A stretch of 46,631 nt of DNA, taken from positions 3,803 through 50,433 of the forward strand of contig JAGOAA010000012.1 in NCBI GenBank assembly GCA_017984215.1, read 5' to 3'. This document shows, one piece after another, positions 1-45,420 of this stretch (its first letter is position 1; each line of letters starts with the position of its first letter). The notes beneath the pieces are model-generated. The model had not been told where the DNA came from. It was given only the letters and a program-made list of their open reading frames with translations, and did not search any database. Made by a program: the position numbers and the translations under genes. This DNA is from Cytophagaceae bacterium. Lineage in GTDB: Bacteria; Bacteroidota; Bacteroidia; Cytophagales; Spirosomataceae.

Positions 1-254
1 GGTATTTGGCTGAGCGTTCGTTTCATACCTTATCAACCGGCGAGCAGAAAATGATTTTGATCGCCCGGGCATTTGTCAAGAATCCGCCCTTGTTGATTTT
101 GGATGAGCCCTGTCAAGGCTTAGATCAGGAGCAGGTACAGGTGTTGAAAGATGTGATTAATGCAATCGCAGCTCATGCTGATATGACATTGATTTTTGTG
201 TCACACTATGCGGAAGATGTTCCGAGCTGCGTAAATAATGAAATGCTATTGTAG
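1..254 (+). CDS. ABC transporter ATP-binding protein, ModF/PhrA-like, C-terminal part (5' end cut by window)
   Basis: The open frame runs in from the window edge (codons in phase from base 3). The first ATG-like codon is an internal TTG, so no start is visible. The remnant has an ABC signature (LSTGEQK), a Walker B with catalytic Glu (LLILDEP), a D-loop (GLD) and the switch His (FVSH), so it is the end of a nucleotide-binding domain. The tail VSHYAEDVPSC closely resembles the end of the second ATPase domain of ModF-type double-ATPase proteins as I recall them. The protein stops at TAG 252-254, which is also the first part of the GTAGAGACGC edge of a repeat element, and it seems to end somewhat earlier than remembered ModF homologues. 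The ABC ATPase call is firm; the ModF subfamily is inferred. Confidence 0.85.
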   Translation, partial: YLAERSFHTLSTGEQKMILIARAFVKNPPLLILDEPCQGLDQEQVQVLKDVINAIAAHADMTLIFVSHYAEDVPSCVNNEMLL

Positions 255-358
255 AGACGCAATACCTTGCGTCTAGTCCTCAAGTTAAAACCTGGGGTTA
301 AAATATATAACCCCAGACTTCAGTCTGGGGCTTAAGACGCGAGGTATCGCGTCTCTAC
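251..358. repeat. Composite intergenic repeat A-B-A filling the gap between two convergent genes
   Basis: Two outward-facing A hairpins (AGACGCAA/TTGCGTCT at 255-274 and AGACGCGA/TCGCGTCT at 335-354) enclose a perfect B hairpin CCCCAGACTTCAGTCTGGGG (311-330). A partial partner CTGGGGTT also occurs at about 292-299. The two ends are inverted GTAGAGACGC / GCGTCTCTAC. The left TAG (252-254) is the stop of the ABC ATPase, and the right CTA (355-357) read on the minus strand is the stop of the DinB gene, so no unique spacer remains. Related copies lie near 25.3, 39.1, 43.1 and 45.1 kb. The hairpins could also act as bidirectional terminators, although no strong U-tract follows them here. Confidence 0.9.
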
Positions 359-807
359 GATCCGTATTTCTGAATCATGGCTACCTGCCCCGCATGGTAA
401 GCGGTATGTGAAATAATCCGACCAAAGGCTTCAGCTTTTGTCTTTGTCCCAAATTCCTTAGTAGTGATTTGCGTCGACCAATCTTCTTCAGCAACGGAAG
501 CCATGATACTTGCAATCGTTTGGCCCGATTCAGCTAATAGGTTTTGAATAGCTGTTAAATCTCTCCAAACACCCGTATCCTTTTGGTCAATCACGGTATG
601 TGCGACAACCTTTACTTCCGTATGGCCAAAGACATTCTTGCAAAAAAGTAATTCTACCTCCGCAATGTGCTGTAAGAGAAACCCGATGGAATTCGGCGCG
701 GTTCCTAATTTCTTCGATAGATCTGTGGGGGTAAGAGTCTCAGTTACTTTACTTAGTCGGGTGCGCGCTTCGATGTAGGCGGCTTGGAGGTGTTGGGAGG
801 TGGGCAT
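355..807 (-). CDS. DinB family protein (putative metal-dependent thiol transferase/hydrolase)
   Basis: A 150-residue four-helix-bundle protein of the DinB/YfiT superfamily. The three-histidine metal site of the family is visible: H47 in LLQHIAE, and H134 and H138 in HTAYHAGQ. Family members bind Ni/Zn and several act with low-molecular-weight thiols. A link to the bacillithiol pathway (bshB1 at 12.8 kb) is only a thought. The substrate cannot be read from the sequence. The ATG at 807 is preceded within 6 nt by a heptamer array (814-841), so its translation start lies against repeat DNA. Its TAG stop is formed by the edge of the 251-358 repeat. Confidence 0.85.
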   Translation of the reverse strand: MPTSQHLQAAYIEARTRLSKVTETLTPTDLSKKLGTAPNSIGFLLQHIAEVELLFCKNVFGHTEVKVVAHTVIDQKDTGVWRDLTAIQNLLAESGQTIASIMASVAEEDWSTQITTKEFGTKTKAEAFGRIISHTAYHAGQVAMIQKYGS

Positions 808-813
808 GAGTTT

Positions 814-841
814 TAGACTTTAGACGTTGGACTTTAGACTG
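814..841 (-). repeat. Heptamer array (module C), 4 units, immediately upstream of the DinB start
   Basis: Read on the minus strand the units are CAGTCTA, AAGTCCA, ACGTCTA and AAGTCTA, ending 6 nt before the DinB ATG. The first unit is preceded by CTA, giving the CTACAGTCTA junction also seen at other loci. Upstream bases about 842-865 look like a decayed A hairpin (GAGGTATTCCATCGC). A 16-nt segment (823-838) is an exact inverted copy of 921-936. Confidence 0.85.
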
Positions 842-881
842 TAGCGATGGAATACCTCGAAACTATTTTTCAGCCTTTAAT

Positions 882-912
882 CAAATCTACCTTATTTCTA
901 GCCTAATGTCAA
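882..912 (-). promoter_or_regulatory. Bacteroidota-type promoter for the DinB gene
   Basis: On the minus strand TTGA (909-912) is followed after 19 nt by TAGATTTG (882-889), a full match to the TAnnTTTG -7 element. Transcription would start near 875, placing the heptamer array in the 5' leader of dinB. Pattern match only. Confidence 0.45.
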
Positions 913-917
913 TGCTA

Positions 918-938
918 GCTTCTAAAGTCCAACGTCCA
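918..938 (-). repeat. Heptamer array (module C), 3 units, directly after the M24 peptidase stop
   Basis: Read on the minus strand right after TAA (939-941): TGGACGT, TGGACTT, TAGAAGC. There is no spacer between stop and array. It faces the array at 814-841, so the pair makes a 16-nt inverted repeat around an 82-nt spacer that holds the DinB promoter. Confidence 0.8.
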
Positions 939-2159
939 TTAAAATGCCTGCATAATCGAAGGACTCGGTTGGCTAAACCATTTAGGGCCATGTTCGGTCA
1001 TGTAAACACAATCTTCCAACCGAACACCGAATTCCCCTGGAATTGCGATGGTTGGTTCTATGCTGAAACACATGCCCACTTGAAGCGGTAATTTATTTCC
1101 TTTGACCATATTGCCCCATTCGTGCCCATCCATGCCGATTCCATGGCCGGTTCGATGGGGAAGGCCTGGTAATTTATACTCCGGGCCAAAACCTGCTTTA
1201 ACTAATAATCCGCGAGCCGCTAGATCCACATTTTCACATGGGGCGCCGAGCACCGCCGCTTCAAATCCGGCTTGTTGGGCCCGCTTCTCTAAATTCCAAA
1301 TATCAATCTGCTTCTGTGTCGGTTCCCCAAAAACAACTGTCCGTGTAATATCTGATTCATAGCCATCCACTTGGCATCCGCAGTCCAACATGACCATATC
1401 GCCTTTTTGAAGGATTTGCTTGCGTGAACTGCCATGCGGAAAGGAAGTTGCTACGCCAAAAGTTACCGAAGCAAAACCATGTTGGGCTCCTAATTCGCTG
1501 TGTTTTTGTGCAATTTTTTGGCTGATTTGACGCGGGGTACAGCCTTCCGTTAGGGCGGCGATACCCGCCTGAATGGCTAGTGTTGTAATGTCATTCGCTT
1601 TAAGCATCAATGCAATTTCAGCAGGCGATTTGATGAGTCGGCAAGTAACCGAAACCGGATCGCCACTGACCAATTGAAATTGTTGGCCAGCTTTTTGAAG
1701 TCCATTTGAGATAAAGAAACGCGTTTGTTCCTCGATGCCAATTTGGCCTGAGGCAAAACCGAAGTCTTTGATGGTTTTGATGCAAAGTTCAAAGGGGTTT
1801 TCGTCCTCGTGCCAGGTACGGACTTGTTTGCCTATTTTGATTAATTCGAGCAGGCGATCTTCTTCGAAATAAGGACATATGTAGGTCAGTTCGCCTTTGG
1901 CAGGAATAATCACCAACATGGATCTTTCACTGGGATACCAGGAAAGTCCGGTGAAGTATTGCATCGTGGTGCCCGCATCCAAAATCAATGCGACCATGTT
2001 ATTTTTTTGAAGGAGTTCTTGGGCTTTGCCGATGCGTTGAATCCGTTCTTCATTGCTGATTGGAGAGGTCTCGCTTGGCGCTTGCGTATATAGGTTTGCG
2101 TTACCCATCAGCGTAGAGATGCCGATGGAGCTTTTGATGAAGTCGCGACGTTGAATCAT
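939..2159 (-). CDS. Tat-exported M24 family metallopeptidase (Xaa-Pro aminopeptidase-like)
   Basis: A 406-residue protein from the ATG at 2159; an upstream TTG at 2180 would add 7 residues and is less likely. The N-terminus has a twin-arginine motif (QRRDFIK) followed by a short hydrophobic stretch, so folded export by Tat is expected. A creatinase-like N-domain (about 35-165) precedes a pita-bread catalytic domain. The five metal ligands are recognisable: Asp in MLDCGC, Asp in ESDITRT, His in TGHGIGMDGHE, Glu in FSIEPT and Glu in RLEDCV. It probably trims N-terminal residues from proline-containing peptides in the periplasm; the exact specificity is not readable. It ends in TAA immediately followed by heptamer repeats. 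Confidence 0.9.
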   Translation of the reverse strand: MIQRRDFIKSSIGISTLMGNANLYTQAPSETSPISNEERIQRIGKAQELLQKNNMVALILDAGTTMQYFTGLSWYPSERSMLVIIPAKGELTYICPYFEEDRLLELIKIGKQVRTWHEDENPFELCIKTIKDFGFASGQIGIEEQTRFFISNGLQKAGQQFQLVSGDPVSVTCRLIKSPAEIALMLKANDITTLAIQAGIAALTEGCTPRQISQKIAQKHSELGAQHGFASVTFGVATSFPHGSSRKQILQKGDMVMLDCGCQVDGYESDITRTVVFGEPTQKQIDIWNLEKRAQQAGFEAAVLGAPCENVDLAARGLLVKAGFGPEYKLPGLPHRTGHGIGMDGHEWGNMVKGNKLPLQVGMCFSIEPTIAIPGEFGVRLEDCVYMTEHGPKWFSQPSPSIMQAF

Positions 2160-2236
2160 AATCCGGTTTGTTTGAAGCAATTTACAGAATATTCGCCGAC
2201 TAGGAAAGTGGAATTTTGCTGCATAGAAAAAGGCCG

Positions 2237-2399
2237 AATGTCAAAATTTTGACATTATAAATTTTATTTTGTCAACTGAAAATAGTTGTCTAGTGAGCTG
2301 AATATGTTTATTTAAGGGTATTTTGAGTATGTATTGCTCCTGATTTTGTCAATTTGTTCTTAAATTATATGGGGTTTGAATTTAATATCACTGACAAAA
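2237..2399. promoter_or_regulatory. Palindrome and TTTTGTCA half-site cluster between M24 peptidase and WYL regulator (candidate operators)
   Basis: A perfect 20-nt palindrome AATGTCAAAATTTTGACATT lies at 2237-2256. The half-site TTTTGTCA recurs at 2267-2274 and 2344-2351, and its complement TGACAAAA at 2392-2399. All lie in the AT-rich divergent gap (2160-2438) between a minus-strand and a plus-strand gene. The obvious candidate ligand is the neighbouring WYL-type regulator acting on itself and on the M24 gene; this is inferred from position. I did not find a clean TAnnTTTG element for either gene here. Confidence 0.45.
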
Positions 2400-2438
2400 A
2401 TGAGTAATTTGAATTTCTCATTTTAATATCCTAGTCCA

Positions 2439-3461: not shown

Positions 3462-3512
3462 TTCAAGAGTGGAACTTGGACTGCTAATCGCTTGACTTTT
3501 GGCAATGCCTCT

Positions 3513-3520
3513 TAGATTTG
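3513..3520 (+). promoter_or_regulatory. TAnnTTTG element for glf
   Basis: TAGATTTG 30 nt before the glf ATG, with CTTGAC at 3491-3496 at about the -33 distance. It fits the Bacteroidota promoter consensus and implies a leader of about 23 nt. Confidence 0.45.
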
Positions 3521-3550
3521 TTAATTTTAATTTTTAGTTCTTAAAATTAC

Positions 3551-4570: not shown

Positions 4571-5461
4571 ATGCAAAATTCAAAGCAAGTAGACGTAGGC
4601 ATTATGATCTATGGGAAACCCTATCAAACAGCCGTTTCACTACATACTCTTTACAAATACTCAAAGCAACACATCAATAAAATCTATGTGACTTTCGAAA
4701 AGGTTCAGCCTTTTGGATTTGATATGGATGAGTTAAAAGCCTTATTGGAAGGACTTCCCGTTGTTTATAATGTGTCAGAACGGTTTTTTGGATTTCAAAA
4801 TTTGAGTTCAAACTCGATCAAGCAAAAATTGAAATTCTTAATTCCTTCGTATCGGAAATCAGTGCGTTACCAGTATGCCTGGGAGGAAGCTAAGATGCCT
4901 TATTTGTTTTTGATGCACAATGATATGCTCTTCTCGGGTGATTTAATCGGGAAATATTTGGATGTAATCGGTACGGATATTGCCGCAGGGTCGATCGGTC
5001 AATGCTGGAACTGTCCTGCGTTTAACAAGGGCTGTGTGGATCAGCAGTATTATGACTACCGACCAAGCAGCCAAGAGTTGTTGGAATTATATAAAGATTG
5101 GCCACATGACCGTGCGAGTTCAATGGGCTTATTGGGCGAGGGAAAAGTTAGTTGGCCCCTTCCCGAATGTCGCCTCAATGAATTCGTTGCATTATTTAAT
5201 ATTCCTGCTGCGCGTAAACTAGTCTTTCCACGTGGCAAGGCTCGTTTATTTGGGTTGAAAAATTCGATTGACTTTGGTATACCTTGGTTTCAGGATATTT
5301 CGCACATGGGCATTAAACTGCGCCATACTTCCTACGATACACATGCGGAACATGGCTGGTGTAGTAACCATGCAGGAGGGACGCAATCCTTGACCAATGA
5401 GAATTTGTATGTACGCGAGGAAGAAATTGCCAAGACGTATTTCGAGGAAAATTGTAAATAA
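4571..5461 (+). CDS. Putative glycosyltransferase, partner of glf
   Basis: A 296-residue protein, not assigned to a named family. The N-terminus (VDVGIMIYGKPYQTAVSLHTL, then a second strand KIYVTFEKV) looks like a GT-A fold. YLFLMHNDMLFSGD (111-124) has a HND triad (116-118) where GT-A enzymes have their metal-binding DXD, flanked by hydrophobic strands. A Cys/Trp-rich segment QCWNCPAFNKGC and a late HAEHGWCSNHAGG may hold further active-site residues. There are no membrane segments. Its position directly behind glf suggests a galactofuranosyltransferase; that is inference from context. A hairpin terminator follows. Confidence 0.6.
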   Translation: MQNSKQVDVGIMIYGKPYQTAVSLHTLYKYSKQHINKIYVTFEKVQPFGFDMDELKALLEGLPVVYNVSERFFGFQNLSSNSIKQKLKFLIPSYRKSVRYQYAWEEAKMPYLFLMHNDMLFSGDLIGKYLDVIGTDIAAGSIGQCWNCPAFNKGCVDQQYYDYRPSSQELLELYKDWPHDRASSMGLLGEGKVSWPLPECRLNEFVALFNIPAARKLVFPRGKARLFGLKNSIDFGIPWFQDISHMGIKLRHTSYDTHAEHGWCSNHAGGTQSLTNENLYVREEEIAKTYFEENCK

Positions 5462-5480
5462 GTCTTTCGAAAAGGATAAG

Positions 5481-5513
5481 CCGGTTAGCAGGAAATGGTT
5501 AACCGGTTTTTTT
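5481..5513 (+). terminator. Rho-independent terminator after glf-glycosyltransferase
   Basis: Stem CCGGTTA (5481-5487) pairs with TAACCGG (5500-5506), followed by seven T (5507-5513). Confidence 0.85.
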
Positions 5514-5532
5514 ATGTTCAATAGCGGGCAAC

Positions 5533-5559
5533 AAAAAAGCCCAACATTTCTGTTGAGCT
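5533..5559 (-). terminator. Rho-independent terminator of tRNA-Thr
   Basis: On the minus strand AGCTCAACA (5559-5551), a GAAA tetraloop and TGTTGGGCT (5546-5538) form a 9-bp stem with one T-G wobble, followed by six T (down to 5533). It lies just downstream of the tRNA 3' end. Confidence 0.85.
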
Positions 5560-7600: not shown

Positions 7601-9079
7601 TTAAACTAATTTTTCAAAAATACGCTCCATCGATACCGCATGGCCTAATTTTTCTTTTAGGTCAGCGATAGAAATGCGCTCTTGGCTCATCGTATTGCGA
7701 TCACGGACCGTAACGGTCTGGTCTTCCATGGTTTGATAATCAACCACGACGCAATATGGCGTTCCAATTAAATCTTGACGTGTATAGCGCTTACCGATCG
7801 CTCCTCCATCGTCATACGTTGTATTGAAGGCAAATTTTAATTGATTCGTAATTTCTTGTGCTTTTTCTGCCAATCCATCTTTCTTCACCAAAGGCAATAC
7901 CGCCACTTTCGTAGGTGCTAAGGCCGGATGAATATTCAAGTAAACGCGTTGTTTCAAGCTTTCGCCTTCTCCTGTCGTTTCTTCCGTGTAGGCATTGCAC
8001 AAAATAGCTAAGAACAAGCGATCTGCTCCCACGGATGTCTCTACCACATATGGAATGTAGTTTTGATTGATCTCGGGGTCAAAATATTGTTGCTTTTTCT
8101 TCGATAAATCTTGGTGCGCCTTTAAGTCAAAGTCGGTCCGTGAATGTATCCCTTCCATTTCCTTAAAGCCAAATGGGAACTTATACTCAATGTCCACCGC
8201 AGCGTTTGCATAGTGGGCTAATTTATCATGATCATGGAATTTCAAGGAATCTGCCGGTAAGCCGATTGCCTGGTGAAACTTCATACGCGTTTCTTTCCAT
8301 TTGTTGTACCATTCCATTTCCGTGCCAGGACGTACAAAAAATTGCATTTCCATTTGTTCGAATTCGCGCATACGGAAGATGAAATTTCGTGCCACGATCT
8401 CATTGCGGAAGGCTTTTCCAATTTGCGCAATACCAAACGGCACTTTCATGCGGCCTGTTTTTTGCACATTTAAGAAATTGACAAATATTCCTTGAGCTGT
8501 CTCTGGACGTAAATAAATAAGGGATGCATCTTCAGAAACCGCACCCACTTGCGTCGAGAACATCAAGTTGAATTGACGTACTTCAGTCCAATTGGCCGTT
8601 CCGGAAACCGGGCATTTAATGTTTTGGTCAATGATTAATTGGCGAACCGCTTCTAAATCTCCGGCATCCAATCCTTTCGCCATCGCTTGCATGAGGGCTT
8701 TCGCCTCATCTGCTTTCCCTTCATCCTCTAAGGCTGCCGCACGCTCTTCTAATAAGGTATCAGCCCGGTAACGCTTCTTGGAATCCTTGTTATCAATCAT
8801 GGGATCATTGAATGAATCCACGTGGCCTGAGGCCTTCCAAGTCAACGGATGCATGAAAATTGACGCATCTAAGCCTACCACGTTGTCGTTCAACATGGTC
8901 ATCGCTTTATACCAAACGTTCTTTAAATTATTCTTTAGTTCTACGCCATTTTGACCATAGTCATAAACGGCCTGTAAGCCATCGTAAATTTCAGAGGATG
9001 GAAATACGAAGCCATATTCTTTGGCGTGTGAAATTATATCCTTAAGTGCTGAGGCGGTATCTTGTTTTTTCTGCTCCAT
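7601..9079 (-). CDS. glyS: Glycyl-tRNA synthetase, eukaryote/archaeal-like alpha2 type
   Basis: A 492-residue class II synthetase that charges tRNA-Gly. The N-terminus (HAKEYGFVFPSSEIYDGL, then AVYDYGQNGVELKNN) is diagnostic of the single-chain dimeric GlyRS, not the alpha2beta2 form. Motif 2 is at FRNEIVARNFIFRMREFEQMEM and motif 3 around SVGADRLFLAIL. The C-terminal anticodon-binding domain begins near LAPTKVAVLPLV. The start was chosen at ATG 9079; a TTG at 9091 would add MNDY. It is the first gene of a likely operon with the DUF349 gene and is divergent from the GT9 gene across about 85 nt. Confidence 0.95.
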   Translation of the reverse strand: MEQKKQDTASALKDIISHAKEYGFVFPSSEIYDGLQAVYDYGQNGVELKNNLKNVWYKAMTMLNDNVVGLDASIFMHPLTWKASGHVDSFNDPMIDNKDSKKRYRADTLLEERAAALEDEGKADEAKALMQAMAKGLDAGDLEAVRQLIIDQNIKCPVSGTANWTEVRQFNLMFSTQVGAVSEDASLIYLRPETAQGIFVNFLNVQKTGRMKVPFGIAQIGKAFRNEIVARNFIFRMREFEQMEMQFFVRPGTEMEWYNKWKETRMKFHQAIGLPADSLKFHDHDKLAHYANAAVDIEYKFPFGFKEMEGIHSRTDFDLKAHQDLSKKKQQYFDPEINQNYIPYVVETSVGADRLFLAILCNAYTEETTGEGESLKQRVYLNIHPALAPTKVAVLPLVKKDGLAEKAQEITNQLKFAFNTTYDDGGAIGKRYTRQDLIGTPYCVVVDYQTMEDQTVTVRDRNTMSQERISIADLKEKLGHAVSMERIFEKLV

Positions 9080-25151: not shown

Positions 25152-25159
25152 GTTTTTTA

Positions 25160-25387
25160 TTTGGCAAACCTTTCTGGATTGCCAAAGTTTGAGGCGTTTT
25201 TTACGCCGATTCCCCAGGCTGAAGCCTGGGGTTATAAAAAGTGTAACCTCAGACTTTAGTCTAGGGACAAACGACAAGCGTCTAATCGCCGCATTTCATG
25301 CGTCTCAAACTTTGGCAATCCTTGAAGGTTTGCCAAAGAAAATAGACGCGAAGTATCGCGTCTCTACAGTCCAACGTCCAACGTCTA
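25160..25387. repeat. Composite repeat: inverted D arms around B hairpins, then A hairpin and C heptamers abutting pepT
   Basis: Left D arm (25160-25209) and right D arm (25285-25338) are about 50-nt imperfect inverted copies, each with its own TTTGGCAA...TTGCCAAA hairpin. Inside lie B hairpins CCCCAGGCTGAAGCCTGGGG (25212-25231) and an imperfect CCTCAGACTTTAGTCTAGGG (25247-25266). After the right arm come hairpin A (AGACGCGA/TCGCGTCT, 25344-25363), junction CTACAGTCCA, and three heptamers CAGTCCA, ACGTCCA, ACGTCTA (25367-25387). The final CTA is the pepT stop on the minus strand. Confidence 0.9.
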
Positions 25388-26653
25388 ATATCCATTTTCA
25401 GCCACCAACCCCGCTAAATAAATCACCGTCTCGGTAGCCTTGTTCATGTCCTGGACAGAAACCCACTCTCGCTTGCTGTGGAATGCATGCTCGCCTGCAA
25501 AGATGTTCGGGCAGGGTAGACCCATAAATGTCAAACGAGATCCGTCCGTACCACCTCGGATGGAGCGGGTCTCTGGATGTAAACCGGCCAAACGCATGGC
25601 TTCCATGGCGAAATCCATGCAATGGGGATGATGCTGAAGCACCTCATACATGTTTCTGTATTGCTCTTTTTGTTCAAAACGCACAGAAGAACGGGGATAA
25701 TTTTTCAAAACCGAATGCGTGATTTCTTTTAATTGCTCCCCATATTCGACAAGTTTGCTCGTGTCAAAATCTCGAAGTATAAAATCGATTTGAGCTTCTT
25801 CGACACTGCCTGAAATATCCGTCGGGTGAATAAATCCCTCCTTTTCCTCCGTTGTTTCTGGACTACAGGTTTCTTGCGGTAAGTTTAAAACAATCTCAGC
25901 TGCAATTTTTAAAGCACTTTCCATGCGACCTTTCGCAAATCCCGGATGCTGGGATACCCCTTGAATGTAGATGTGAAAACTATCTGCTGAAAAGGTCTCA
26001 TTTTCGAGGTGGCCACGTTTTTCGCCGTCAAGCGTATACCCAAACTGGGCGTTAATCTTCGCAAGATTAATGTGGTCGGCACCTCGGCCAACTTCCTCAT
26101 CGGGTGTAAATACGATCGTAATGGGTCCATGGGGAACTTCGGGATGTTGGGCCCAAAATGCCACCGCATCCATGATTTCGGCAAGCCCTGCTTTATTATC
26201 AGCCCCTAATAGCGTGGAACCACTTGCCGTAATGATGTCATTCCCCATTTGTTCGGATAAATCAGGGTGCTCTGTCAATCGGATGATGACATTAGGGTCA
26301 TCGGGTAAGATCAGGTCTTGGCCTTGGTAATTAGCGTGAACAATTGGTTTTACATTTTCCCCGGAACAATCTGGTGAGGTATCCATGTGAGAACAGAAGA
26401 ATATGCCGGGTACTTCCTGAGGTACATTGCCAGGTAGAAATGCGTATACATAACCTAGTTCGTCTAATTCGGCATTTGAAATACCCAGATCAATTAACTC
26501 TTGCACCAAAACCTTTCCCAGATTTTTTTGTTTGGAAGTGGTAGGGCAACTCGAGGATGTCGGATCGGATTGGGTATCAATTTGTACGTATTGAAGAAAC
26601 CGCTCTTGTGCGCTAAAAGAGTAGCTTTTGAATAATTCAGAGATGAGAGCCAT
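25385..26653 (-). CDS. pepT: Peptidase T (tripeptide aminopeptidase, M20B)
   Basis: 422 residues from the ATG at 26653; a longer frame adds 27 residues of AT-rich, non-conserved leader. The N-terminus (ELFKSYSFSAQERFLQYVQIDTQSDP) and metal-site motifs match PepT: SHMDTSPDCSGENVKP (His and Asp), LGADNKAG (bridging Asp) and FTPDEEVGRGADH (catalytic Glu and Glu ligand). It releases N-terminal residues from tripeptides in the cytoplasm. Its TAG stop (25385-25387) is the last three bases of the last heptamer of the adjoining repeat. The gap to divergent gltA (179 nt) holds short inverted repeats at 26724-26740 and an AACAG...CTGTT hairpin but no consensus promoter that I can defend. Confidence 0.93.
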   Translation of the reverse strand: MALISELFKSYSFSAQERFLQYVQIDTQSDPTSSSCPTTSKQKNLGKVLVQELIDLGISNAELDELGYVYAFLPGNVPQEVPGIFFCSHMDTSPDCSGENVKPIVHANYQGQDLILPDDPNVIIRLTEHPDLSEQMGNDIITASGSTLLGADNKAGLAEIMDAVAFWAQHPEVPHGPITIVFTPDEEVGRGADHINLAKINAQFGYTLDGEKRGHLENETFSADSFHIYIQGVSQHPGFAKGRMESALKIAAEIVLNLPQETCSPETTEEKEGFIHPTDISGSVEEAQIDFILRDFDTSKLVEYGEQLKEITHSVLKNYPRSSVRFEQKEQYRNMYEVLQHHPHCMDFAMEAMRLAGLHPETRSIRGGTDGSRLTFMGLPCPNIFAGEHAFHSKREWVSVQDMNKATETVIYLAGLVAENGY

Positions 26654-37677: not shown

Positions 37678-39045
37678 ATGAAATATATGAAATTGAAAGG
37701 GTATTTGTTGGGATTTGTCATGCTTTGTGCAGGAGCAAATGCACAGGCGCAAGAGGCGGAAAAGGGGACATTGATTGATAAAATCATTGCCAAAGTGGAT
37801 AATCATTTTATTCTTAAGTCGGAGGTTGAACAACAATACAGCCAATATTTGACAAGTGGTCAAGCAAATACACCGAATCGTTGTCAGATTTTGGAAGGAT
37901 TGGTTGTCAATAAATTGATGCTAGCCAAGGCTGAAATAGATTCAGTTATTGTAGATGAAAAGCGTATCGATAGTGAATTGAATTCACGTATGGATCAGAT
38001 GGAGGCGCAATATGGTTCTGCCAAAAACATTGTAGAGGCATATGGGCAGTCGATTGTAAATCTTAAAGAAGATTTGCGTTTGTCTTTGAAAGAGCAATTG
38101 ACAGGCCGTAAAATGCAGGAAAAAATCACGAGTGATGTAAAAATTACACCCAAAGAGGTTTCTGCGTTTTTTGCGCGTATCCCGACGGATTCCTTGCCTT
38201 ATTTGCCTTCCGAGGTGGAAGTAGGTCATATCGTACGTTTGGCTCAGCCAAACAAGACGCAAAAAGCGGAGTTGGTGGGTCGATTGATGGATTATCGCCG
38301 TCGCATCGAAAAAGGTGAATCTTTTGAGGACTTAGCGAAATTATATTCGGAAGATTTAGGGAGTGGAAAGCGTGGAGGAGATTTAGGTTTTTCAAAGCGT
38401 GGTCAAATGGTAGCACCTTTTGAGGCGGCTGCGTTAAAACTGAAACCGAATCAATTATCTGATGTAGTAGAATCGGAATTTGGGTATCACTTGATTCAAT
38501 TATTGGCCGTTCGTGGTCAGGAATATCATGCACGTCATATTTTGATTCGTCCGGATTATCAAAAGTTGGATTTGACTGAGCCGACTCACTTTTTGGATAG
38601 TTTGCGTATTGTCATTCAACGTGACTCGTTGACTTTTGATAAAGCGGCACGTGCACATTCAGAAGATAAGTTGACGCAAGATGCGGGAGGATTAATGTTG
38701 GATATGGCATCACGCTCTACGCGTTTGCCATTTGATGGTACGATGGAACCGGGTTTATATTTTTCATTGGATTCCATGAAAGTAGGTACCATCTCGACAC
38801 CAATTCCATATCGAACAGATGATGGGCGTTCTGCCGTTCGTATTTTGTATTACAAGGCGAAATATGCGCCCCATTATGCGAACTTGAAGGATGACTACCA
38901 AAAGATTGCCAACATCGCCTTAACGCGTAAGAAAAACGATGCGATTGAGGAGTGGTTTTTGAAAGCCAAAGAGGATGTGTTCATCTTTATTGATGATGAG
39001 TATTTGGATTGTAAGGTTTTGAGTGGTGGGGTGATTGATAATTAG
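37678..39045 (+). CDS. SurA-like peptidyl-prolyl isomerase
   Basis: 455 residues (ATG 37678; a second ATG at 37687 is possible). A signal peptide (ending NAQAQ) is followed by a SurA N-domain (IDKIIAKVDNHFILKSEVEQQY ... ILEGLVVNKLMLAKAE, about 30-160). The first parvulin domain (about 180-285: VEVGHIVRLAQ, GGDLGFSKRGQMVAPFEAA, FGYHLIQLL) is well formed; a second (about 290-395: YHARHILIRP ... DAGGLMLDMASRS) is weaker. This is the standard periplasmic chaperone for outer-membrane beta-barrels in tandem with the larger paralogue upstream. The TAG stop (39043-39045) is the first triplet of a heptamer array. Confidence 0.92.
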   Translation: MKYMKLKGYLLGFVMLCAGANAQAQEAEKGTLIDKIIAKVDNHFILKSEVEQQYSQYLTSGQANTPNRCQILEGLVVNKLMLAKAEIDSVIVDEKRIDSELNSRMDQMEAQYGSAKNIVEAYGQSIVNLKEDLRLSLKEQLTGRKMQEKITSDVKITPKEVSAFFARIPTDSLPYLPSEVEVGHIVRLAQPNKTQKAELVGRLMDYRRRIEKGESFEDLAKLYSEDLGSGKRGGDLGFSKRGQMVAPFEAAALKLKPNQLSDVVESEFGYHLIQLLAVRGQEYHARHILIRPDYQKLDLTEPTHFLDSLRIVIQRDSLTFDKAARAHSEDKLTQDAGGLMLDMASRSTRLPFDGTMEPGLYFSLDSMKVGTISTPIPYRTDDGRSAVRILYYKAKYAPHYANLKDDYQKIANIALTRKKNDAIEEWFLKAKEDVFIFIDDEYLDCKVLSGGVIDN

Positions 39046-39070
39046 ACTTTGGACTTTAGACTTTAGAGTT
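39043..39070 (+). repeat. Heptamer array (module C), 4 units, starting on the foldase stop codon
   Basis: TAGACTT, TGGACTT, TAGACTT, TAGAGTT in a row with no spacer; the first TAG is the stop of the SurA-like gene. Confidence 0.9.
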
Positions 39071-39083
39071 TTACCTAAATTAG

Positions 39084-39110
39084 AGACGCGAAATATCGCG
39101 TCTTTTTTTT
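39084..39110 (+). terminator. Terminator formed from an A hairpin
   Basis: AGACGCGA (39084-39091), AATA, TCGCGTCT (39096-39103), followed by T to 39110. It is the A module of the repeat family with a U-tract added, placed to end the foldase transcript. A weaker mirror copy (39134-39158, T-run on the minus strand) faces thyA. Confidence 0.8.
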
Positions 39111-39133
39111 GATTATCATTTTGAACGCTTGAA

Positions 39134-39158: not shown

Positions 39159-39162
39159 TCCA

Positions 39163-39267
39163 CAGTCTAGCGTCTAAAGTCCAAAGTCTAAAGTCTAATG
39201 TCCAAAGTCAAATGTCCAATGTCCAACGTCTAATTTCCAAAGTCTAATGTCCAAAGTCTAACGTCTA
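39163..39267 (-). repeat. Heptamer array (module C), 15 tandem units, ending on the thyA stop codon
   Basis: Exactly fifteen 7-nt units from CAGTCTA (39163-39169) to ACGTCTA (39261-39267), consensus AaGTCYA in plus reading, preceded by the A-to-C junction CCACAGTCTA. The last CTA (39265-39267) read on the minus strand is the TAG stop of thyA. This is the longest array in the window and is inverted relative to the array at 39043-39070. Confidence 0.95.
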
Positions 39268-40059
39268 AATAGCCACCGGCGCCTTAATTCCAGGATAAGG
39301 ATCATAGCCTTCCAAGGTGAAGTCTTCGAATTGGAAATCTAAAATGTCTTTTACGTTTGGATTGATTTTCATCGTTGGCAAAGCGCGAGGAGTTCTCGAT
39401 AATTGCAAGTCAACTTGCTCCATGTGGTTGCTATATAAATGCGTATCTCCACCGGTCCAAACAAAATCTCCTAAGCCTAAGTCACATACTTGGGCAATCA
39501 TCATGGTCAATAAGGCATAAGATGCTATGTTGAAGGGAACACCTAAAAACACATCCGCAGAACGTTGGTATAACTGACATGATAGTTTGCCATCTGCCAC
39601 ATAGAACTGAAAGAATGCATGACAAGGCATTAAAGCCATTTTGGGCAGGTCCGCAACGTTCCAGGCACTGACAATGATCCGACGGGAATCTGGATTTGTT
39701 TTCAGTGTGTGAACAGCTTCTTTGATTTGGTCGATGACAACGCCGTTGGCGCCTTCCCAACTTCTCCACTGCTTGCCATACACAGGCCCTAGGTCACCGT
39801 TTGAATCAGCCCATTCGTTCCAAATGCTGACGTTGTTGTCTGTCAGGTATTGAATATTGGTTTCCCCTTTTAAGAACCATAAAAGTTCGTAAATGATGGA
39901 TTTAAGGTGCGTTTTCTTTGTTGTAACCAAAGGAAAGCCTTCTTCGAGGTTGAAGCGCATTTGGTAGCCAAAAACACTGGTTGTGCCCGTTCCGGTACGA
40001 TCGGATTTAAATGTGCCGTTTTCTTTGATATGCGTCAATAAATCTAAATATGCTTGCAT
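39265..40059 (-). CDS. thyA: Thymidylate synthase
   Basis: 264 residues, standard ThyA length. Nucleophile C146 lies in [12 protein letters not shown]; the phosphate-binding arginines ([23 protein letters not shown]) and the folate-site C-terminus ending APVAI are intact. It methylates dUMP to dTMP using methylene-tetrahydrofolate. It is the last gene of a phoD-osmC-thyA minus-strand unit with 1-nt gaps. The protein ends at its natural C-terminus, and the TAG immediately after belongs to the heptamer array. Confidence 0.97.
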
Positions 40060-40060
40060 G

Positions 40061-40498: not shown

Positions 40499-40499
40499 G

Positions 40500-41804: not shown

Positions 41805-41818
41805 GTTCGTTTGATTAG

Positions 41819-41826
41819 TATCTTTG
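41819..41826 (+). promoter_or_regulatory. TAnnTTTG element for lysA
   Basis: TATCTTTG, 18 nt before the lysA ATG, with a T-rich -33 region (CTTTTC at 41797-41802) but no exact TTTG. Confidence 0.4.
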
Positions 41827-41844
41827 TGGCTTATAAATTTCCCT

Positions 41845-43080
41845 ATGGCATATTATTCAATTCAGAACATTCCTTTAACAGATTTAGCCAATGAATTTGG
41901 TACTCCACTTTATGTATACGATGCCGACAAAATTAGGGAAAAAATCTCGGTTTTGAGAGCTGCATTTGAAGGAATTGATTTGACTATAAAATATGCGGTA
42001 AAGGCTAATACCAATTTAGCTATTTTGCGCTTGATGCGCGCGAATGGTGTTGATATGGACGTTGTGTCTCCACAGGAATTGGAAATGGGTTTGATTGCGG
42101 GTTATGCGGGTGCAAATATTACGTTTACGCCCTCTGGAGTTCATTTTTCAGAGATTGAATATGCCGTTTCGAAAGGTGCGATTGTCAACTTGGATAATCT
42201 GTCGGTCTTAGAAAAATTTGGCCAAACGTATGGTTCATCGCAACCTTGTTTGATTCGTATTAAGCCACATGTTTTTGGTGGGGGAAATGAGAAGATTATG
42301 ACGGCGCATCCAGAATCAAAGTTTGGGATCTCGATTCACCAAAAGTCGGAGATTTTAGCAATTGTTGAAAAATATAAAATCAATGTCATTGGTTTGCACC
42401 AACATACCGGTTCGGATATCAAGGATGGCAAGACTTTTGAACAGGCTGCCTCGGCGCTGTTTGATTTTGCGTATGATTTTAAGGATTTACAAATCATCGA
42501 CTTAGGTGGTGGCTTTAAAGTACCTTATTCACCAGAAGATCCGGGTGTTAATATGAAGGAAGTAGGCCAAATCATGAGTGATGCCTTTCGTGCTTTCTGT
42601 CAAAAATACGGTCGGGAATTGCGCCTTTGGGTCGAGCCAGGTAAGTTTTTGGTCAGTGAATCTGGTACTTTCCTTGCGGAAACGAATGTTGTGAAGCGGG
42701 ACCCTGTGAAAACCTTCGTGGGCATTAATACAGGTTTAAACCATTTGATTCGCCCCATGATGTACGGTTCATACCACTACATTTTTAATGCGTCAAATCA
42801 AGATACTTCGAAGCAAGAAGACTATCGTGTAACAGGTTATATCTGCGAAACCGATACATTCTCATTTGATTACGCGGGTAAACAAAATGAACGATTATTG
42901 AATGAGGTCAAAGAAGGCGACATCATAGCCTTAGCAAATGCCGGTGCCTATGGGTTCACGATGGCTTCACATTATAATTCACGCTTTTTACCTGCCGAGG
43001 TTTTAGTGGATGGGGGAGTCGCGCGTGTGATTCGTCAACGGGAGACGCTGGATGATTTGTTGAGGAATCAGGAAATATAG
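41845..43080 (+). CDS. lysA: Diaminopimelate decarboxylase
   Basis: 411 residues from ATG 41845 (an upstream frame start at 41824 falls in the promoter). PLP-binding K53 is in KYAVKANTN. Other fold-III motifs are GLHQHTGSDI, DLGGGFKVPY, WVEPGKFLV, the substrate-site Cys in ICETDTFSFD, and NAGAYGFTMASHYNSR. It decarboxylates meso-DAP to lysine, the last step of lysine synthesis. It stands alone; hairpin repeats follow its stop. Confidence 0.95.
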   Translation: MAYYSIQNIPLTDLANEFGTPLYVYDADKIREKISVLRAAFEGIDLTIKYAVKANTNLAILRLMRANGVDMDVVSPQELEMGLIAGYAGANITFTPSGVHFSEIEYAVSKGAIVNLDNLSVLEKFGQTYGSSQPCLIRIKPHVFGGGNEKIMTAHPESKFGISIHQKSEILAIVEKYKINVIGLHQHTGSDIKDGKTFEQAASALFDFAYDFKDLQIIDLGGGFKVPYSPEDPGVNMKEVGQIMSDAFRAFCQKYGRELRLWVEPGKFLVSESGTFLAETNVVKRDPVKTFVGINTGLNHLIRPMMYGSYHYIFNASNQDTSKQEDYRVTGYICETDTFSFDYAGKQNERLLNEVKEGDIIALANAGAYGFTMASHYNSRFLPAEVLVDGGVARVIRQRETLDDLLRNQEI

Positions 43081-43093
43081 TAACCTTTCTTAA

Positions 43094-43180
43094 TCCCTAG
43101 GCTGAAGCTTAGGGATAAAAAATAGCCCCAGACTTCAGTCTGGGGACTCGCGAGGTATCGCGTCTCTACTATCCAACGTA
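43094..43180. repeat. Composite repeat B-B-A with a short heptamer remnant, between lysA and the AraC-type gene
   Basis: Hairpins TCCCTAGGCTGAAGCTTAGGGA (22 nt, 43094-43115, one wobble pair) and CCCCAGACTTCAGTCTGGGG (43126-43145) are followed by a truncated A hairpin (CGCGAGGTATCGCG, 43149-43162) with edge TCTCTAC (43163-43169) and TATCCAACGTACA, a decayed heptamer stretch. Here the element does not touch either flanking stop codon. Confidence 0.85.
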
Positions 43181-43198
43181 CACCGCCTAAGCCCAAAT

Positions 43199-44389
43199 TT
43201 ATATTTCAATCGACTTTATATATGCCGATGGAGTAATTCCCACTTGCTCCTTAAATGCATCAATGAATTTCGATCTTGAAGCAAAGCCTGCTTTTGTAGA
43301 AATAGCTTCGATGGTTATTTTTTTAGATTCTCCGGCGTTCATGAGCTCAATGGCATAATCGATGCGGATTTTTTTACGCCATTGACTAAATGTTATACCC
43401 ATTACTGTGTTGAAATACAATGATAATGCTCTTTCGGAAATTTTTAAGTCAAAAGACATTTGGGCTAATGTGAAATCCTTTTTTGTAAAGGGGGATGTTA
43501 GTAAATAGCTTTGTAATTCTTCTTCAATTTCTAAATCGATTTCAATGTGCTTTCTTTTTTTAGGTATAACTGATTTAAATTCATTTATATAGCTTGAATT
43601 CTCTTTGTTTGAGATGAAAGAAACATTGCCATACAGGATTTTGGGAAATAAAAACAAGAAGAAATTTTGCAAGAAAAAGCCGCCACCTGCTACGGCAAAA
43701 TAATGCTGTTTGGAAGTGAAAATTTGGGTATATGCATCACTCTGAAAGTCAAAATTGATTCCTACAACCGTCAACATATGTAATAAACTGTTGCTTGAAA
43801 TGATGAATTGAATTCCACAAAGTAAATAGATCCATCTTTTGAGGATTTTGTGGTTTGTAGTCAATTGCCCTAAAACGGCCTTCGTTTTTCGGGCATGCCA
43901 ATTGAAATAGATGAGCGAAAATATGCAATATGCAACTAAGTGTAAAGTCCTTGAAACGAGTATAAATTCAAACGATACAAATTGGAAATCTAGACTATAT
44001 TTCTCAGTTACATTGATAATTTCGTGGGCGATTTTGGCTTTTTGATCAAAAGGAAGCGTGGTGTAGGGTAAGCAATTAATGAGAATGAAAACAGCCGGTA
44101 TAAGATGTAATAAGTCTAATTTTTCTAGTCTATGATTGTCTGTTACCATGGTTTTTACATAGTAAAACAACAAGGGGCCTAACAAATAGGATAGAGGTAG
44201 AAAATGCACAAAACAAATTCCCTCCCAAAATGGGTCTTGTGTGTAATGTAAGCCATAATAGATCAATACAACCACATTACAGCATAAGAAGAAGAGGGCT
44301 AAAAATGCATTCGATCTATTTAATGAACTCAAATAATAAATTAGAATAAAGGAAGTGAATATTCCGAATAAGGGGAAAATGATGCCCAT
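43199..44389 (-). CDS. AraC family regulator with N-terminal membrane domain
   Basis: 396 residues. About six or seven hydrophobic helices occupy residues 1-260, followed by a linker rich in Lys/Glu (about 270-290) and an AraC-type double HTH (about 295-396: FTLAQMSFDLKISERALSLYFNTVMGITFSQW and ITIEAISTKAGFASRSKFIDAFKEQVGITPSAY). This architecture is common in Bacteroidota and suggests a membrane sensor that binds DNA directly. By eye the gene is richer in A and T than its neighbours. It is divergent from the NTF2-like gene, its likely target, with inverted repeats between them. Confidence 0.88.
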   Translation of the reverse strand: MGIIFPLFGIFTSFILIYYLSSLNRSNAFLALFFLCCNVVVLIYYGLHYTQDPFWEGICFVHFLPLSYLLGPLLFYYVKTMVTDNHRLEKLDLLHLIPAVFILINCLPYTTLPFDQKAKIAHEIINVTEKYSLDFQFVSFEFILVSRTLHLVAYCIFSLIYFNWHARKTKAVLGQLTTNHKILKRWIYLLCGIQFIISSNSLLHMLTVVGINFDFQSDAYTQIFTSKQHYFAVAGGGFFLQNFFLFLFPKILYGNVSFISNKENSSYINEFKSVIPKKRKHIEIDLEIEEELQSYLLTSPFTKKDFTLAQMSFDLKISERALSLYFNTVMGITFSQWRKKIRIDYAIELMNAGESKKITIEAISTKAGFASRSKFIDAFKEQVGITPSAYIKSIEI

Positions 44390-44445
44390 GATGAATTAGG
44401 TTTTTCGCTTAAAGTTTCAAGATAATTAATATTGATAAAGTATCA

Positions 44446-44522
44446 TGTTCCAACCCCGCAATTTGGAACAAATTAATGTTGCATACATGTGAAATTGTTT
44501 CTTCAGCTGCACAAATTGCAAC
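44446..44522. promoter_or_regulatory. Inverted repeats between the AraC-type gene and the NTF2-like gene (candidate operators)
   Basis: TGTTCCAA (44446-44453) and TTGGAACA (44463-44470) form a perfect 8-bp inverted repeat around 9 nt. A second pair GTTGCA (44478-44483) and TGCAAC (44517-44522) lies closer to the downstream gene. Both fit a binding region for the divergently encoded regulator; this rests on position only. Confidence 0.45.
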
Positions 44523-44549
44523 TTTATTCATCCTTAAATCAAAATTCTA

Positions 44550-45062
44550 ATGAAAAAATTAGTACTCGCATTATTGACTATTTCTACTTTTGTGCATGGT
44601 CAGTCTTCACAAGTTTTCCAAGAGGGAAATGCTGAAACGGGATTCAATTCTGGTTATAATTTGGAAAAATCACCTAATACGAAATGGGTATTAAATTCCA
44701 TCAAAGCGTTAGAATCCATGGACACGCTTAGCTACAAATCTTTTTACTCAGCAGATGTGAAATTTCATGATAATTTAGAAGAAAAGAATTTGAGCCAAAA
44801 TGTGGCATTTATTAGTGCCTTAAAAGCGAACGGTATTTCTGTGAAATTTGAAAAGGTAGCTCCTATTTGGGAATATGTGCACAAAAACAAAAATATGAAA
44901 GAGGCCAACAACTATGTGATTTCATATCAATATGCTACATTAACAAAAGCTGGTAAAACCATTAAAGTAGTCATTAGTGCTGTTGACCTAATTAAAGATG
45001 GTAAAATAGTACAAGAATGGCTTGCTTACGATACTGCGGGTATCATGAGCTTGTTTAAGTAA
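44550..45062 (+). CDS. Exported NTF2/SnoaL-like small protein
   Basis: 170 residues with a signal peptide (about 1-18, ending FVHGQ). The mature part looks like an NTF2-like cone fold: helix WVLNSIKALESMDTLSYKSFYSADVKFHDNL, then strands ending KIVQEWLAYDTAGIMSLF, the QEWxxYD pattern seen in SnoaL-like proteins. No catalytic pair can be assigned. It is divergent from the AraC-type regulator and A/T-rich like it. Weak terminator GGGGC-GAAG-GCCCC-TTTT follows (45073-45090). Confidence 0.7.
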   Translation: MKKLVLALLTISTFVHGQSSQVFQEGNAETGFNSGYNLEKSPNTKWVLNSIKALESMDTLSYKSFYSADVKFHDNLEEKNLSQNVAFISALKANGISVKFEKVAPIWEYVHKNKNMKEANNYVISYQYATLTKAGKTIKVVISAVDLIKDGKIVQEWLAYDTAGIMSLFK

Positions 45063-45072
45063 AGGATCAAGC

Positions 45073-45090
45073 GGGGCGAAGGCCCCTTTT
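45073..45090 (+). terminator. Short terminator after the NTF2-like gene
   Basis: GGGGC, loop GAAG, GCCCC, then four T. A short GC-rich stem with a weak U-tract. Confidence 0.6.
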
Positions 45091-45100
45091 GAAATTGTAT

Positions 45101-45293
45101 AACGCGATACCTCGCGTTTAATCCCCAGACTGAAGTCTGGGGTTAATTTATAATCCTAGGCTTTAGCCTAGGGACTAGACGCGAGGTATCGCGTCACTAC
45201 AGTCTAATGACTAAAGTTCAACGTCTAGGTCATCAGTCCAATCGCCGCAATTCATGCGGCTCAAAATTGGCAATCCTGAAAGGTTTGCCAAAG
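45101..45293. repeat. Composite repeat A-B-B-A-C-D in the 355-nt gap 45063-45417
   Basis: In order: partial A hairpin AACGCGA/TCGCGTT (45101-45118); B hairpin CCCCAGACTGAAGTCTGGGG (45123-45142); second B-type hairpin CCTAGGCTTTAGCCTAGG (45155-45172); full A hairpin with edge GCGTCACTAC (45176-45200); four heptamers CAGTCTA, ATGACTA, AAGTTCA, ACGTCTA (45200-45227); then a D arm (about 45241-45293: CGCCGCAATTCATGCGGCTC and the TTGGCAA...TTTGCCAAAG hairpin). A further half A edge (ATCGCGTCTCTAC) is at 45325-45337. No gene is seen in this gap. Confidence 0.88.
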
Positions 45294-45346
45294 AGTCATT
45301 AGTCCAACTCTAAAAGAAGCCGTTATCGCGTCTCTACAAAACGGAT

Positions 45347-45420
45347 CTCTTACCTTTTAACTCTTAACTCTTCACTCTTACCTCTTATCTCTTCACTCTT
45401 AACTCTTCACTCTTAACTCA
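45347..45420 (-). repeat. Second heptamer family (GAGTKAA), about 10 units, ending on the ATP-grasp stop codon
   Basis: In plus reading the units CTCTTAC, CTTTTAA, CTCTTAA, CTCTTCA, CTCTTAC, CTCTTAT, CTCTTCA, CTCTTAA, CTCTTCA, CTCTTAA run without spacers from 45347 to 45416, then partial CTCA. The TCA at 45418-45420 is the TGA stop of the minus-strand gene, so the array again begins on a stop codon. The unit differs in sequence from the TRGACTT heptamer but keeps the 7-nt period and location. Confidence 0.93.

What the first reader, a model, noticed from the sequence alone, without database searches (positions are those of the whole stretch)
251..45420. A modular intergenic repeat family whose outer edge supplies the stop codons of neighbouring genes
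Five genes end on a TAG that is part of a repeat: the ModF-like ATPase (252-254) and DinB (355-357) on the A edge GTAGAGACGC, and pepT (25385-25387), the SurA-like foldase (39043-39045) and thyA (39265-39267) on a heptamer. The ATP-grasp gene ends in a TGA that opens a heptamer array, and the M24 gene ends in TAA immediately before one. Among the other genes I count only four TAG stops in about 34, so the link is not just base composition. No native 3' spacer is left between gene and repeat. This suggests an element that inserts at, or grows from, stop codons, or one selected to form a universal 3' boundary.
Basis: partly seen in the sequence, partly recalled or inferred. Interest (0 to 1): 0.9.

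Follow-up and report, generated by a model that had tools for sequence, protein, structure and literature searches.

The report
Repeats that become gene stop codons
In a freshwater bacterium of the Aquirufa group, two kinds of short repeated DNA sit at the ends of some genes and often form the stop signal itself; one is a known kind of hairpin, the other a seven-letter repeat whose spelling changes from species to species at the same gene ends.

Summary
In detail: five window genes end on a TAG inside a repeat, a sixth on a TGA, and the genome-wide link is real (TAG at 23 of 29 stops beside TTRGACN heptamers, 143 of 686 without a repeat). But two unlike things were merged. (1) The "A edge" is a GTAG-headed hairpin, i.e. 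REP-like; in two relatives a REP-transposase-like gene is flanked by inverted copies, and it is published that GTAG-REPs supply TAG stops. (2) Heptamer arrays are a separate layer, also found in relatives without that hairpin, densest between convergent genes and in sense orientation beside stops (41:0). At one gene, protein length is equal in 30 of 30 genomes while heptamer spelling and stop codon (TAG, TGA, TAA) vary together. Arrays on both sides of a gap resemble each other more than others of the same genome. Conserved protein ends stay intact; the pepT end varies. Sense heptamers at stops are known from Xanthomonas and Nostoc; I found no report of joint turnover of spelling and stop codon. 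The backup-stop idea failed its test. How heptamers spread, and whether the transposase moves the hairpin, is inferred, not shown.

The parts
251..275 (+). GTAG-headed hairpin (REP-like); TAG 252-254 is the stop of the ABC-ATPase fragment
   Evidence: folds as unpaired GTAG + 8-bp stem + 4-nt loop, -10.8 kcal/mol, z -4.6
333..358 (-). GTAG-headed hairpin (REP-like); TAG 355-357 is the stop of the DinB-like gene
   Evidence: the same hairpin at the same stop in relatives G031 and G011
812..844 (+). TTRGACN array 5 nt from the START of the DinB-like gene, antisense to it: an exception to the 3'-end rule
914..938 (-). short TTRGACN array abutting the TAA of the M24 gene
25340..25367 (-). GTAG-headed hairpin behind the pepT heptamers
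25367..25388 (-). TTRGACN heptamers; TAG 25385-25387 is the pepT stop
39042..39069 (+). TTRGACN array starting at the SurA-like gene's TAG (39043-39045)
39082..39113 (+). terminator-like hairpin plus T-run between the two arrays
   Evidence: 1 found, shuffles mean 0.3
39159..39269 (-). 15-unit TTRGACN array starting at the thyA TAG (39265-39267)
43148..43169 (-). diverged GTAG-headed hairpin, not at a stop (29 nt from the TAA at 43199)
   Evidence: 5 pairs, z -2.0
45176..45200 (-). diverged GTAG-type hairpin (GTAGTGACGC)
45323..45337 (-). GTAG edge (GTAGAGACGCGATAA) just beyond the ATP-grasp heptamer array
45347..45420 (-). NTRAGAG array overlapping the ATP-grasp TGA (45418-45420)

Best explanation
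Two independent repeat layers share the 3' ends of some genes in the Aquirufa group. Layer 1 is a REP-like element: an unpaired GTAG head plus an 8-bp hairpin, presumably moved by a REP-associated tyrosine transposase (RAYT). When a copy lies flush with a gene, its GTAG provides the TAG. Layer 2 is a heptamer array, often starting at or a few nt after the stop, read in the sense direction, mirrored by a second array at many convergent neighbours, at some sites with a terminator-like hairpin between. Most arrays contain a stop codon, and 7 is not a multiple of 3, so an array with one stop per unit closes any frame within 21 nt; this lets it take over a stop at little cost. Spellings are then replaced in evolution by exchange between arrays (unequal recombination or template switching) that carries the stop codon along in phase and keeps orientation, so stop identity follows the array. 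SHOWN: positions, orientation, phase excess in G000, unchanged length at conserved proteins, spelling and stop varying together at orthologous ends, similarity of the two arms. INFERRED: RAYT mobility, the copying between arrays, and any function (perhaps transcript 3'-end processing or ribosome run-off; none tested).
For: REP layer: GTAG + stem-loop; the 15-mer GTAGAGACGCGATAC in 18 of 37 genus genomes, 0 of 22 others; RAYT-like gene with inverted copies on both sides in G001 (4844 minus, 5453 plus, around ORF 4867-5370) and G011 (7822 plus, 8438 minus, around 7915-8415); RAYT-like hits in 16 of 18 hairpin-bearing and 9 of 19 hairpin-free genus genomes, p 0.013. Heptamer layer: lag-7 self-similarity after stops of convergent genes in all five genomes sampled, weak or absent at tandem ends; sense:antisense beside stops 29:0 and 12:0, hairpin 14:0; gaps with a repeat 37/85 convergent, 32/336 tandem, 2/132 divergent. 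Stop take-over: ATP-grasp protein of equal length in 30/30 genomes, TGA with NTRAGAG (G000, G011, G035), TAG with TTRGACN (G031, G012, G006, G003, G059); G000 against G031: last 300 coding nt 87% identical, next 60 nt 12% ungapped, TGA against TAG. thyA length equal in 30/30; equal tails in 10/10 orthologue rows (5 genes, 2 genomes) with an array at the stop. Phase: stops at +7,14,21,28,35 = .15 .10 .12 .09 .12 against .054 +/- .021, G000 convergent ends. Arms: unit distance .83 against 1.66 +/- .25 for shuffled partners, 0 of 2000 as low.
Against: Phase-locking is clear in G000 and in the small G033 and G016 samples, weak in G007, absent in G020. Only 13/29 TTRGACN, 7/12 NTRAGAG and 4/14 hairpin matches have their own stop as the gene's stop. 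Conservation of array sites is significant overall (8/15 against 9/59, p 0.004) but not within convergent ends (6/13 against 3/17, p 0.12); rows from two related genomes are not independent. Where the repeat begins beyond +2, tails agree in only 2 of 5 orthologue rows. The pepT length varies (8 of 28 equal to G000, range -8 to +5). RAYT link: the only hits over the NF047646 cut-off (3 of 38 genomes: G033, G016, G024) are in hairpin-free genomes; relatives of the G001 protein are in 11 of 38 genomes, 7 hairpin-bearing and 4 not, and only G011 at 64% or more; none in the window's own genome; the nearest flanking copies point their GTAG heads inward in G001 but outward in G011. One window array lies at a gene start.
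Confidence: 0.62

Rival explanations
1. Fail-safe stops: arrays are kept because most units hold a stop codon and seven is not a multiple of three, so they catch readthrough in all three frames.
For: 59 of 67 arrays lying wholly behind the stop have a stop in at least one sense frame; stops in all frames 35 sense, 18 antisense.
Against: Permuting the seven columns gives the same number (34.0 +/- 3.4 against 33 observed), so composition explains it; CAAAGNN arrays hold no stop; a survey found no selection for extra 3' stops in eubacteria (PMC6764699, abstract seen).
Confidence: 0.08
2. Transcription-linked slippage: C-poor, G-rich sense arrays expand where RNA polymerase pauses or ends (convergent ends), which fixes orientation without selection or a dedicated enzyme.
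For: Sense orientation also at tandem ends; arrays 8% C and 30% G against 18% and 20% in all 60-nt 3' flanks; 3'-end location and rarity in divergent gaps.
Against: Does not explain why many unrelated genes of one genome share a spelling, nor the identical order of variant units in both arms at thyA-SurA in G020.
Confidence: 0.25
3. Functional RNA element: the mRNA stretch between stop and terminator must be unstructured and purine-rich, or bind a protein, and the heptamer is a cheap way to make it; a REP hairpin at the stop stalls ribosomes.
For: Sense bias 41:0; terminator-like hairpin between the arms at thyA-SurA. Published: REPs fewer than 16 nt from a stop reduce translation in E. coli (quoted in PMC12306157, passages seen).
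Against: 686 of 741 ends have no such repeat close to the stop; spellings differ too much for one specific binding protein (inference); no expression data here.
Confidence: 0.3
4. Chance plus selection only: repeats land anywhere in gene-free DNA, convergent gaps are the safest place, and abutting stops are incidental.
For: Only 2 of 132 divergent gaps hold a repeat.
Against: Does not predict sense-only orientation (29:0, 12:0, 14:0), the excess at offset -1 (24 of 55 matches) or TAG at 23 of 29.
Confidence: 0.08

Closest known systems
GTAG-tagged REP elements and RAYT transposases (Di Nocera 2013, PMC3733652: section 15 read, passages of others; Nunvar 2010, PMC2817692: passages)
   Same: GTAG head plus palindrome, many intergenic copies, mostly downstream of genes, between convergent or same-direction genes; transposase gene flanked by inverted copies; PMC3733652 states that GTAG-REP termini often provide the TAG stop of flanking ORFs.
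   Different: PMC3733652 lists GTAG repeats in Proteobacteria, Cyanobacteria, Chloroflexi and the PVC group and CGTC repeats for Bacteroidetes; here a GTAG hairpin is in a Bacteroidota genus, together with heptamer arrays. The RAYT-like protein is below the family cut-off.
GGGAATC / GGGGA(T/C)T heptamers of Xanthomonas and Nostoc (Rehm 2015, PMC4692102: section 13 read, other passages)
   Same: Seven-nt units; behind genes mostly on the coding strand within 50 bp of the stop or overlapping it; before genes on the non-coding strand (compare window 812-844); frequent inverted pairs; rare between divergent genes; the same gene neighbours but varying length and sequence in two related species.
   Different: Those are G-rich and form quadruplexes and are commonest between same-direction genes; here units lack GGG runs, many spellings exist in one genus, and spelling and stop codon vary together.
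TAACTGA heptamers of Beggiatoaceae, Cyanobacteria and some Bacteroidetes (MacGregor 2015, PMC4679880: abstract, sections 10 and 15 read)
   Same: Heptamer arrays; 13 overlap the stop of an upstream gene; the paper notes that forward repeats give stops in all three frames.
   Different: [quoted passage not shown] here no lag-7 signal there.
Cyanobacterial short tandemly repeated repetitive (STRR) heptamers
   Same: Intergenic heptamer arrays.
   Different: Name recalled; Calothrix heptamers are only mentioned second-hand in PMC4692102; not compared here.

Membership tests
GTAG-REP element | unpaired GTAG head followed by a palindrome | tested here: met
   3 of 4 window copies folded give GTAG plus 8-9 pairs and a 4-nt loop, z about -4.6; the fourth, diverged, 5 pairs, z -2.0
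GTAG-REP element | many dispersed, extragenic copies | tested here: met
   126 places with up to 2 mismatches against 32 for the reversed pattern; 1 of 101 clusters of hairpins and heptamers inside a called gene
GTAG-REP element | cognate RAYT gene flanked by inverted copies | tested here: inconclusive
   inverted copies flank a RAYT-like gene in G001 and G011, but with opposite polarity of the nearest heads; no relative in the window's own incomplete genome; other RAYT-like loci not inspected
REP-associated tyrosine transposase (NF047646) | score over the curated cut-off | tested here: not met
   54.7 bits against 80 for the G001 protein; Pfam Y1_Tnp 13 against 23. The three genomes with hits over the cut-off have no hairpin 15-mer
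GTAG-REP element | mobility | not testable with these tools
   no transposition assay
Xanthomonas-type 3' heptamer repeats | coding strand, at or within 50 bp after stops | tested here: met
   29:0 and 12:0 sense within -8..+15 nt
Xanthomonas-type 3' heptamer repeats | G-quadruplex-forming G-rich unit | tested here: not met
   main units TTRGACN, NTRAGAG, TAAAGNN, TAAATGG have no run of three G (read by eye; no structure test)
TAACTGA repeats | position a few nt before start codons | tested here: not met
   no lag-7 signal before divergent genes in five genomes; one window array does lie 5 nt from a start
Fail-safe stop array | more stops in all frames than composition predicts | tested here: not met
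   33 observed, 34.0 +/- 3.4 permuted, 67 arrays
Intrinsic terminator | G+C stem followed by a T-run | tested here: inconclusive
   one site at SurA-thyA; 27 of 65 core hairpins in the G000 stretches have a T-rich flank on one side; no transcript data

The most novel reading that the evidence does not exclude
A general 3'-end repeat process in Bacteroidota: tandem arrays of a set length (7, less often 8 nt) are laid down at stop codons in sense orientation, often carry the stop codon as part of the unit, and sweep through a genome so that each species has its own spellings, replacing stop codons of many genes without changing conserved proteins. This would be a concerted-evolution system for gene ends with its own, unidentified copying enzyme or template-switch route.
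Probability: 0.3. Interest if true: 0.78.

Novelty: new variant of a known kind. Interest (0 to 1): 0.58.

Why it matters
It points to a source of stop-codon change other than point mutation: TGA and TAG differ at one gene between two genomes whose protein is 99% identical, together with the neighbouring repeat. Studies that read stop-codon usage as selection or mutation bias could be misled in such genomes. Sense-only placement beside stops with changing spelling is a sharp, testable puzzle about how short repeats are copied between gene ends, and Aquirufa antheringensis, a genus member with a named genome record, carries the arrays.

Tried and rejected
Tried and rejected: (a) one composite mobile element: heptamers occur in species without the hairpin. 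(b) Backup stops: column permutation. (c) Truncation or extension of proteins as the rule: rejected for thyA and the ATP-grasp gene (30/30 equal length each), kept for pepT, where lengths vary and in G004 the last residues look array-coded by eye. (d) Phase-locking as a universal rule: absent in G020, weak in G007. (e) Strong site conservation: overall p 0.004, convergent ends alone p 0.12. (f) Base composition alone. One search failed on a file name and was rerun; loci on the minus strand were not turned, so its rows are superseded. By eye: 16 of 19 genomes with room behind thyA carry an array there, and in 11 of 30 a convergent gene seems to leave no room; by score one search counts 16 of 30. 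Gene calls are a home-made ORF scorer. Orthologue rows from related genomes are not independent. In one search, 2 of 30 pepT loci ran off the contig; nine weak second dinB hits (L337-L345) were left out. Paper searches behind the statement of what was not found: (listings of an open-access library; not all aimed at this point).
Full report
WHAT WAS CHECKED. The TAG at 252-254 and the TAG at 355-357 (minus strand) lie in GTAGAGACGC; the TAGs at 25385-25387, 39043-39045 and 39265-39267 lie in a TTAGACN heptamer; the TGA at 45418-45420 overlaps an NTRAGAG array; the M24 gene's TAA at 939-941 abuts a short TTRGACN array. One array (812-844) lies 5 nt from the start, not the end, of a gene.

GENOME-WIDE TEST. 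The window lies in a 2.43-Mb, 70-contig assembly, 86.6% complete. I took 60 stretches, 1.14 Mb, partly chosen because they hold repeats, partly long contigs tiled without choice. With a simple ORF scorer, 741 gene ends could be judged; 55 have a repeat within -8..+15 nt of the stop. TAG is the stop at 23 of 29 ends beside TTRGACN, 8 of 14 beside the GTAG hairpin, 2 of 12 beside NTRAGAG (TAA 8, TGA 2) and 143 of 686 without a repeat. Orientation is 29:0, 14:0 and 12:0 in favour of sense. The repeat's own stop is the gene's stop (offset -1) in 13, 4 and 7 of these. Intergenic gaps with a repeat: 37 of 85 convergent, 32 of 336 tandem, 2 of 132 divergent; in the long tiled contigs alone 16 of 54, 14 of 234 and 1 of 88.

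TWO LAYERS. The A edge with its inner palindrome folds as an unpaired GTAG head, an 8-bp stem and a 4-nt loop, the anatomy of a REP element. Its exact 15-mer is in 18 of 37 genomes of the genus and in none of 22 others of the order. In relatives G001 and G011 a gene for a REP-transposase-like protein has copies in inverted orientation on both sides, as described for RAYTs (PMC2817692, passages), though the heads nearest the gene point inward in G001 and outward in G011. The protein matches NF047646 at 54.7 bits, below the curated 80. RAYT-like hits occur in 16 of 18 hairpin-bearing and 9 of 19 hairpin-free genus genomes (p 0.013; genomes share ancestry), but the three genomes with hits over the cut-off are hairpin-free, and relatives of the G001 protein occur in 7 hairpin-bearing and 4 hairpin-free genomes and not in the window's own. 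So REP-like anatomy is shown, the transposase link only suggested. [quoted passage not shown] This half of the finding is therefore an already described kind in a new host group.

The heptamers are another matter. Self-similarity at lag 7 after stops of convergent genes stands out in every genome sampled: G000 .369, G020 .342, G007 .414, G033 .413, G016 .651 (4 ends), against .23-.34 at lags 3-6 and 8-13; lag 14 is raised too; there is no such signal before divergent genes. Arrays at convergent and tandem ends: 45/135 and 19/263 (G000), 16/44 and 4/74 (G020), 15/33 and 5/39 (G007), 8/17 and 3/24 (G033), 4/4 and 0/5 (G016); lags 6 and 8 give at most 2 in any class. G020, G007, G033 and G016 have no copy of the hairpin 15-mer. 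The genus includes Aquirufa: contig C4 of G020 has the length of a contig of Aquirufa antheringensis 30S-ANTBAC (468,754 bases).

SAME PLACE, DIFFERENT SPELLING. Between thyA and the convergent surA-like gene, species carry TTRGACN (G000, G031, G006, G012, G059), NTRAGAG-like (G011, G035, G003), CAAAGNN (G020; surA side of G030) or TAAAGNN/TAGAGNN arrays (G013, G002, G015); G033, G018 and G021 carry TGTAGAA or TTAGTGA-like arrays between thyA and another convergent gene; G007, G030 and G022 have none directly behind thyA. The thyA stop is TAG in all 5 TTRGACN genomes, but also in 9 of the 25 others, so this gene alone proves little. The thyA protein has the same length in 30 of 30. The ATP-grasp protein also has equal length in 30 of 30, yet its stop is TGA with NTRAGAG (G000, G011, G035), TAG with TTRGACN (G031, G012, G006, G003, G059), and TAG or TAA with other spellings or without an array. 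Between G000 and G031 the last 300 coding bases are 87% identical, the next 60 only 12% in ungapped comparison, and the stop is TGA against TAG. Over five gene ends and 137 orthologues, TAG goes with TTRGACN in 17 of 21, NTRAGAG 1 of 10, other arrays 10 of 32, none 15 of 70 (4 of 4 flush hairpins by construction) (related rows). An array is present by score at 16/30 thyA, 10/30 surA, 17/28 pepT, 16/30 ATP-grasp and 1/19 dinB ends. pepT length varies: only 8 of 28 equal G000. In a separate comparison with G007 and G020, protein tails agree within 2 residues in 10 of 10 rows with an array at the stop, 2 of 2 with the hairpin, 2 of 5 with a repeat slightly further off and 118 of 135 without.

HOW IT MIGHT WORK. 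Stops recur at +7, +14, +21, +28 and +35 after the real stop in G000 convergent ends (.15 .10 .12 .09 .12 against .054 +/- .021), similarly in the small G033 and G016 samples, weakly in G007, not in G020. So the stop is often the first unit's own. Arrays on both sides of a convergent gap have closer units than shuffled partners of the same genome (.83 against 1.66 +/- .25; 18 gaps; 24 further gaps have an array on one side only). Sites with arrays in G000 more often have arrays in the orthologue (8/15 against 9/59, p 0.004), but not significantly within convergent ends. I infer that arrays exchange tracts in register with the stop and that the two arms copy each other; neither step is shown. 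The idea that arrays are kept as backup stops fails, in line with a survey of eubacteria (PMC6764699, abstract). Sense arrays are C-poor and G-rich, which leaves room for a transcription-linked origin or an RNA-level role.

BEYOND THE GENUS. In 977 gene ends of 75 loci from other genera, strong repeats within 60 nt after the stop have period 7 in 19 cases and 8 in 9, with at most one for any other period from 4 to 12; ends with A or T runs of nine were dropped. In the 60 nt before starts the counts are 10 and 5. This suggests a wider phenomenon, but it is a small sample around one gene, not all of Bacteroidota.

PLACE IN THE LITERATURE. Rehm and colleagues (PMC4692102, section 13 and passages) found G-rich heptamers in Xanthomonas and Nostoc on the coding strand within 50 bp of stops, overlapping them, in inverted pairs, and mostly between the same genes in two Xanthomonas species with varying length and sequence. 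MacGregor (PMC4679880, sections 10 and 15) found TAACTGA arrays, 13 overlapping upstream stops. What I did not find in seven search listings is joint turnover of spelling and stop codon at orthologous ends. Verdict: observation confirmed; the REP half is a described kind; the heptamer half is a new variant of a known kind.

Noticed in passing
window 25155-25342, 45267-45294, and 302-330, 25238-25266, 43117-43145, 45114-45173: Two more palindromic module families (TTTGGCAA..TTGCCAAA and CCCCAGACT..AGTCTGGGG) accompany the hairpins; neither was typed as REP or terminator.
   Followed up: no
window 45418-46629 (right edge): The ATP-grasp ORF is cut by the contig end: most relatives have frames of about 466-501 aa, and contig C11:18586-18708 carries a stretch identical to the first 41 residues of this ORF.
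   Followed up: partly
window 1-254: The ABC-ATPase ending at 254 is split over two overlapping frames in my gene calls (stops at 54 and 254), so this gene may be frameshifted or misassembled.
   Followed up: no
L187, L189, L198, L210, L220, L249: Period-8 arrays behind stops in Chitinophagaceae, a Saprospiraceae and a Pedobacter record; periods 7 and 8 dominate over all others from 4 to 12.
   Followed up: partly
L229, L240, L256: Records labelled Proteobacteria, Betaproteobacteria or Bordetella also have heptamers containing TGA flush with or close to stops.
   Followed up: no
G000:C32, C2 and C65:255230-255298: A further heptamer family GACTAGC, whose CTAG core reads TAG on both strands.
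   Followed up: no
G021, G005, G033, G018, G024 pepT: The pepT homology runs across an in-frame TAA in these five genomes; not examined.
   Followed up: no
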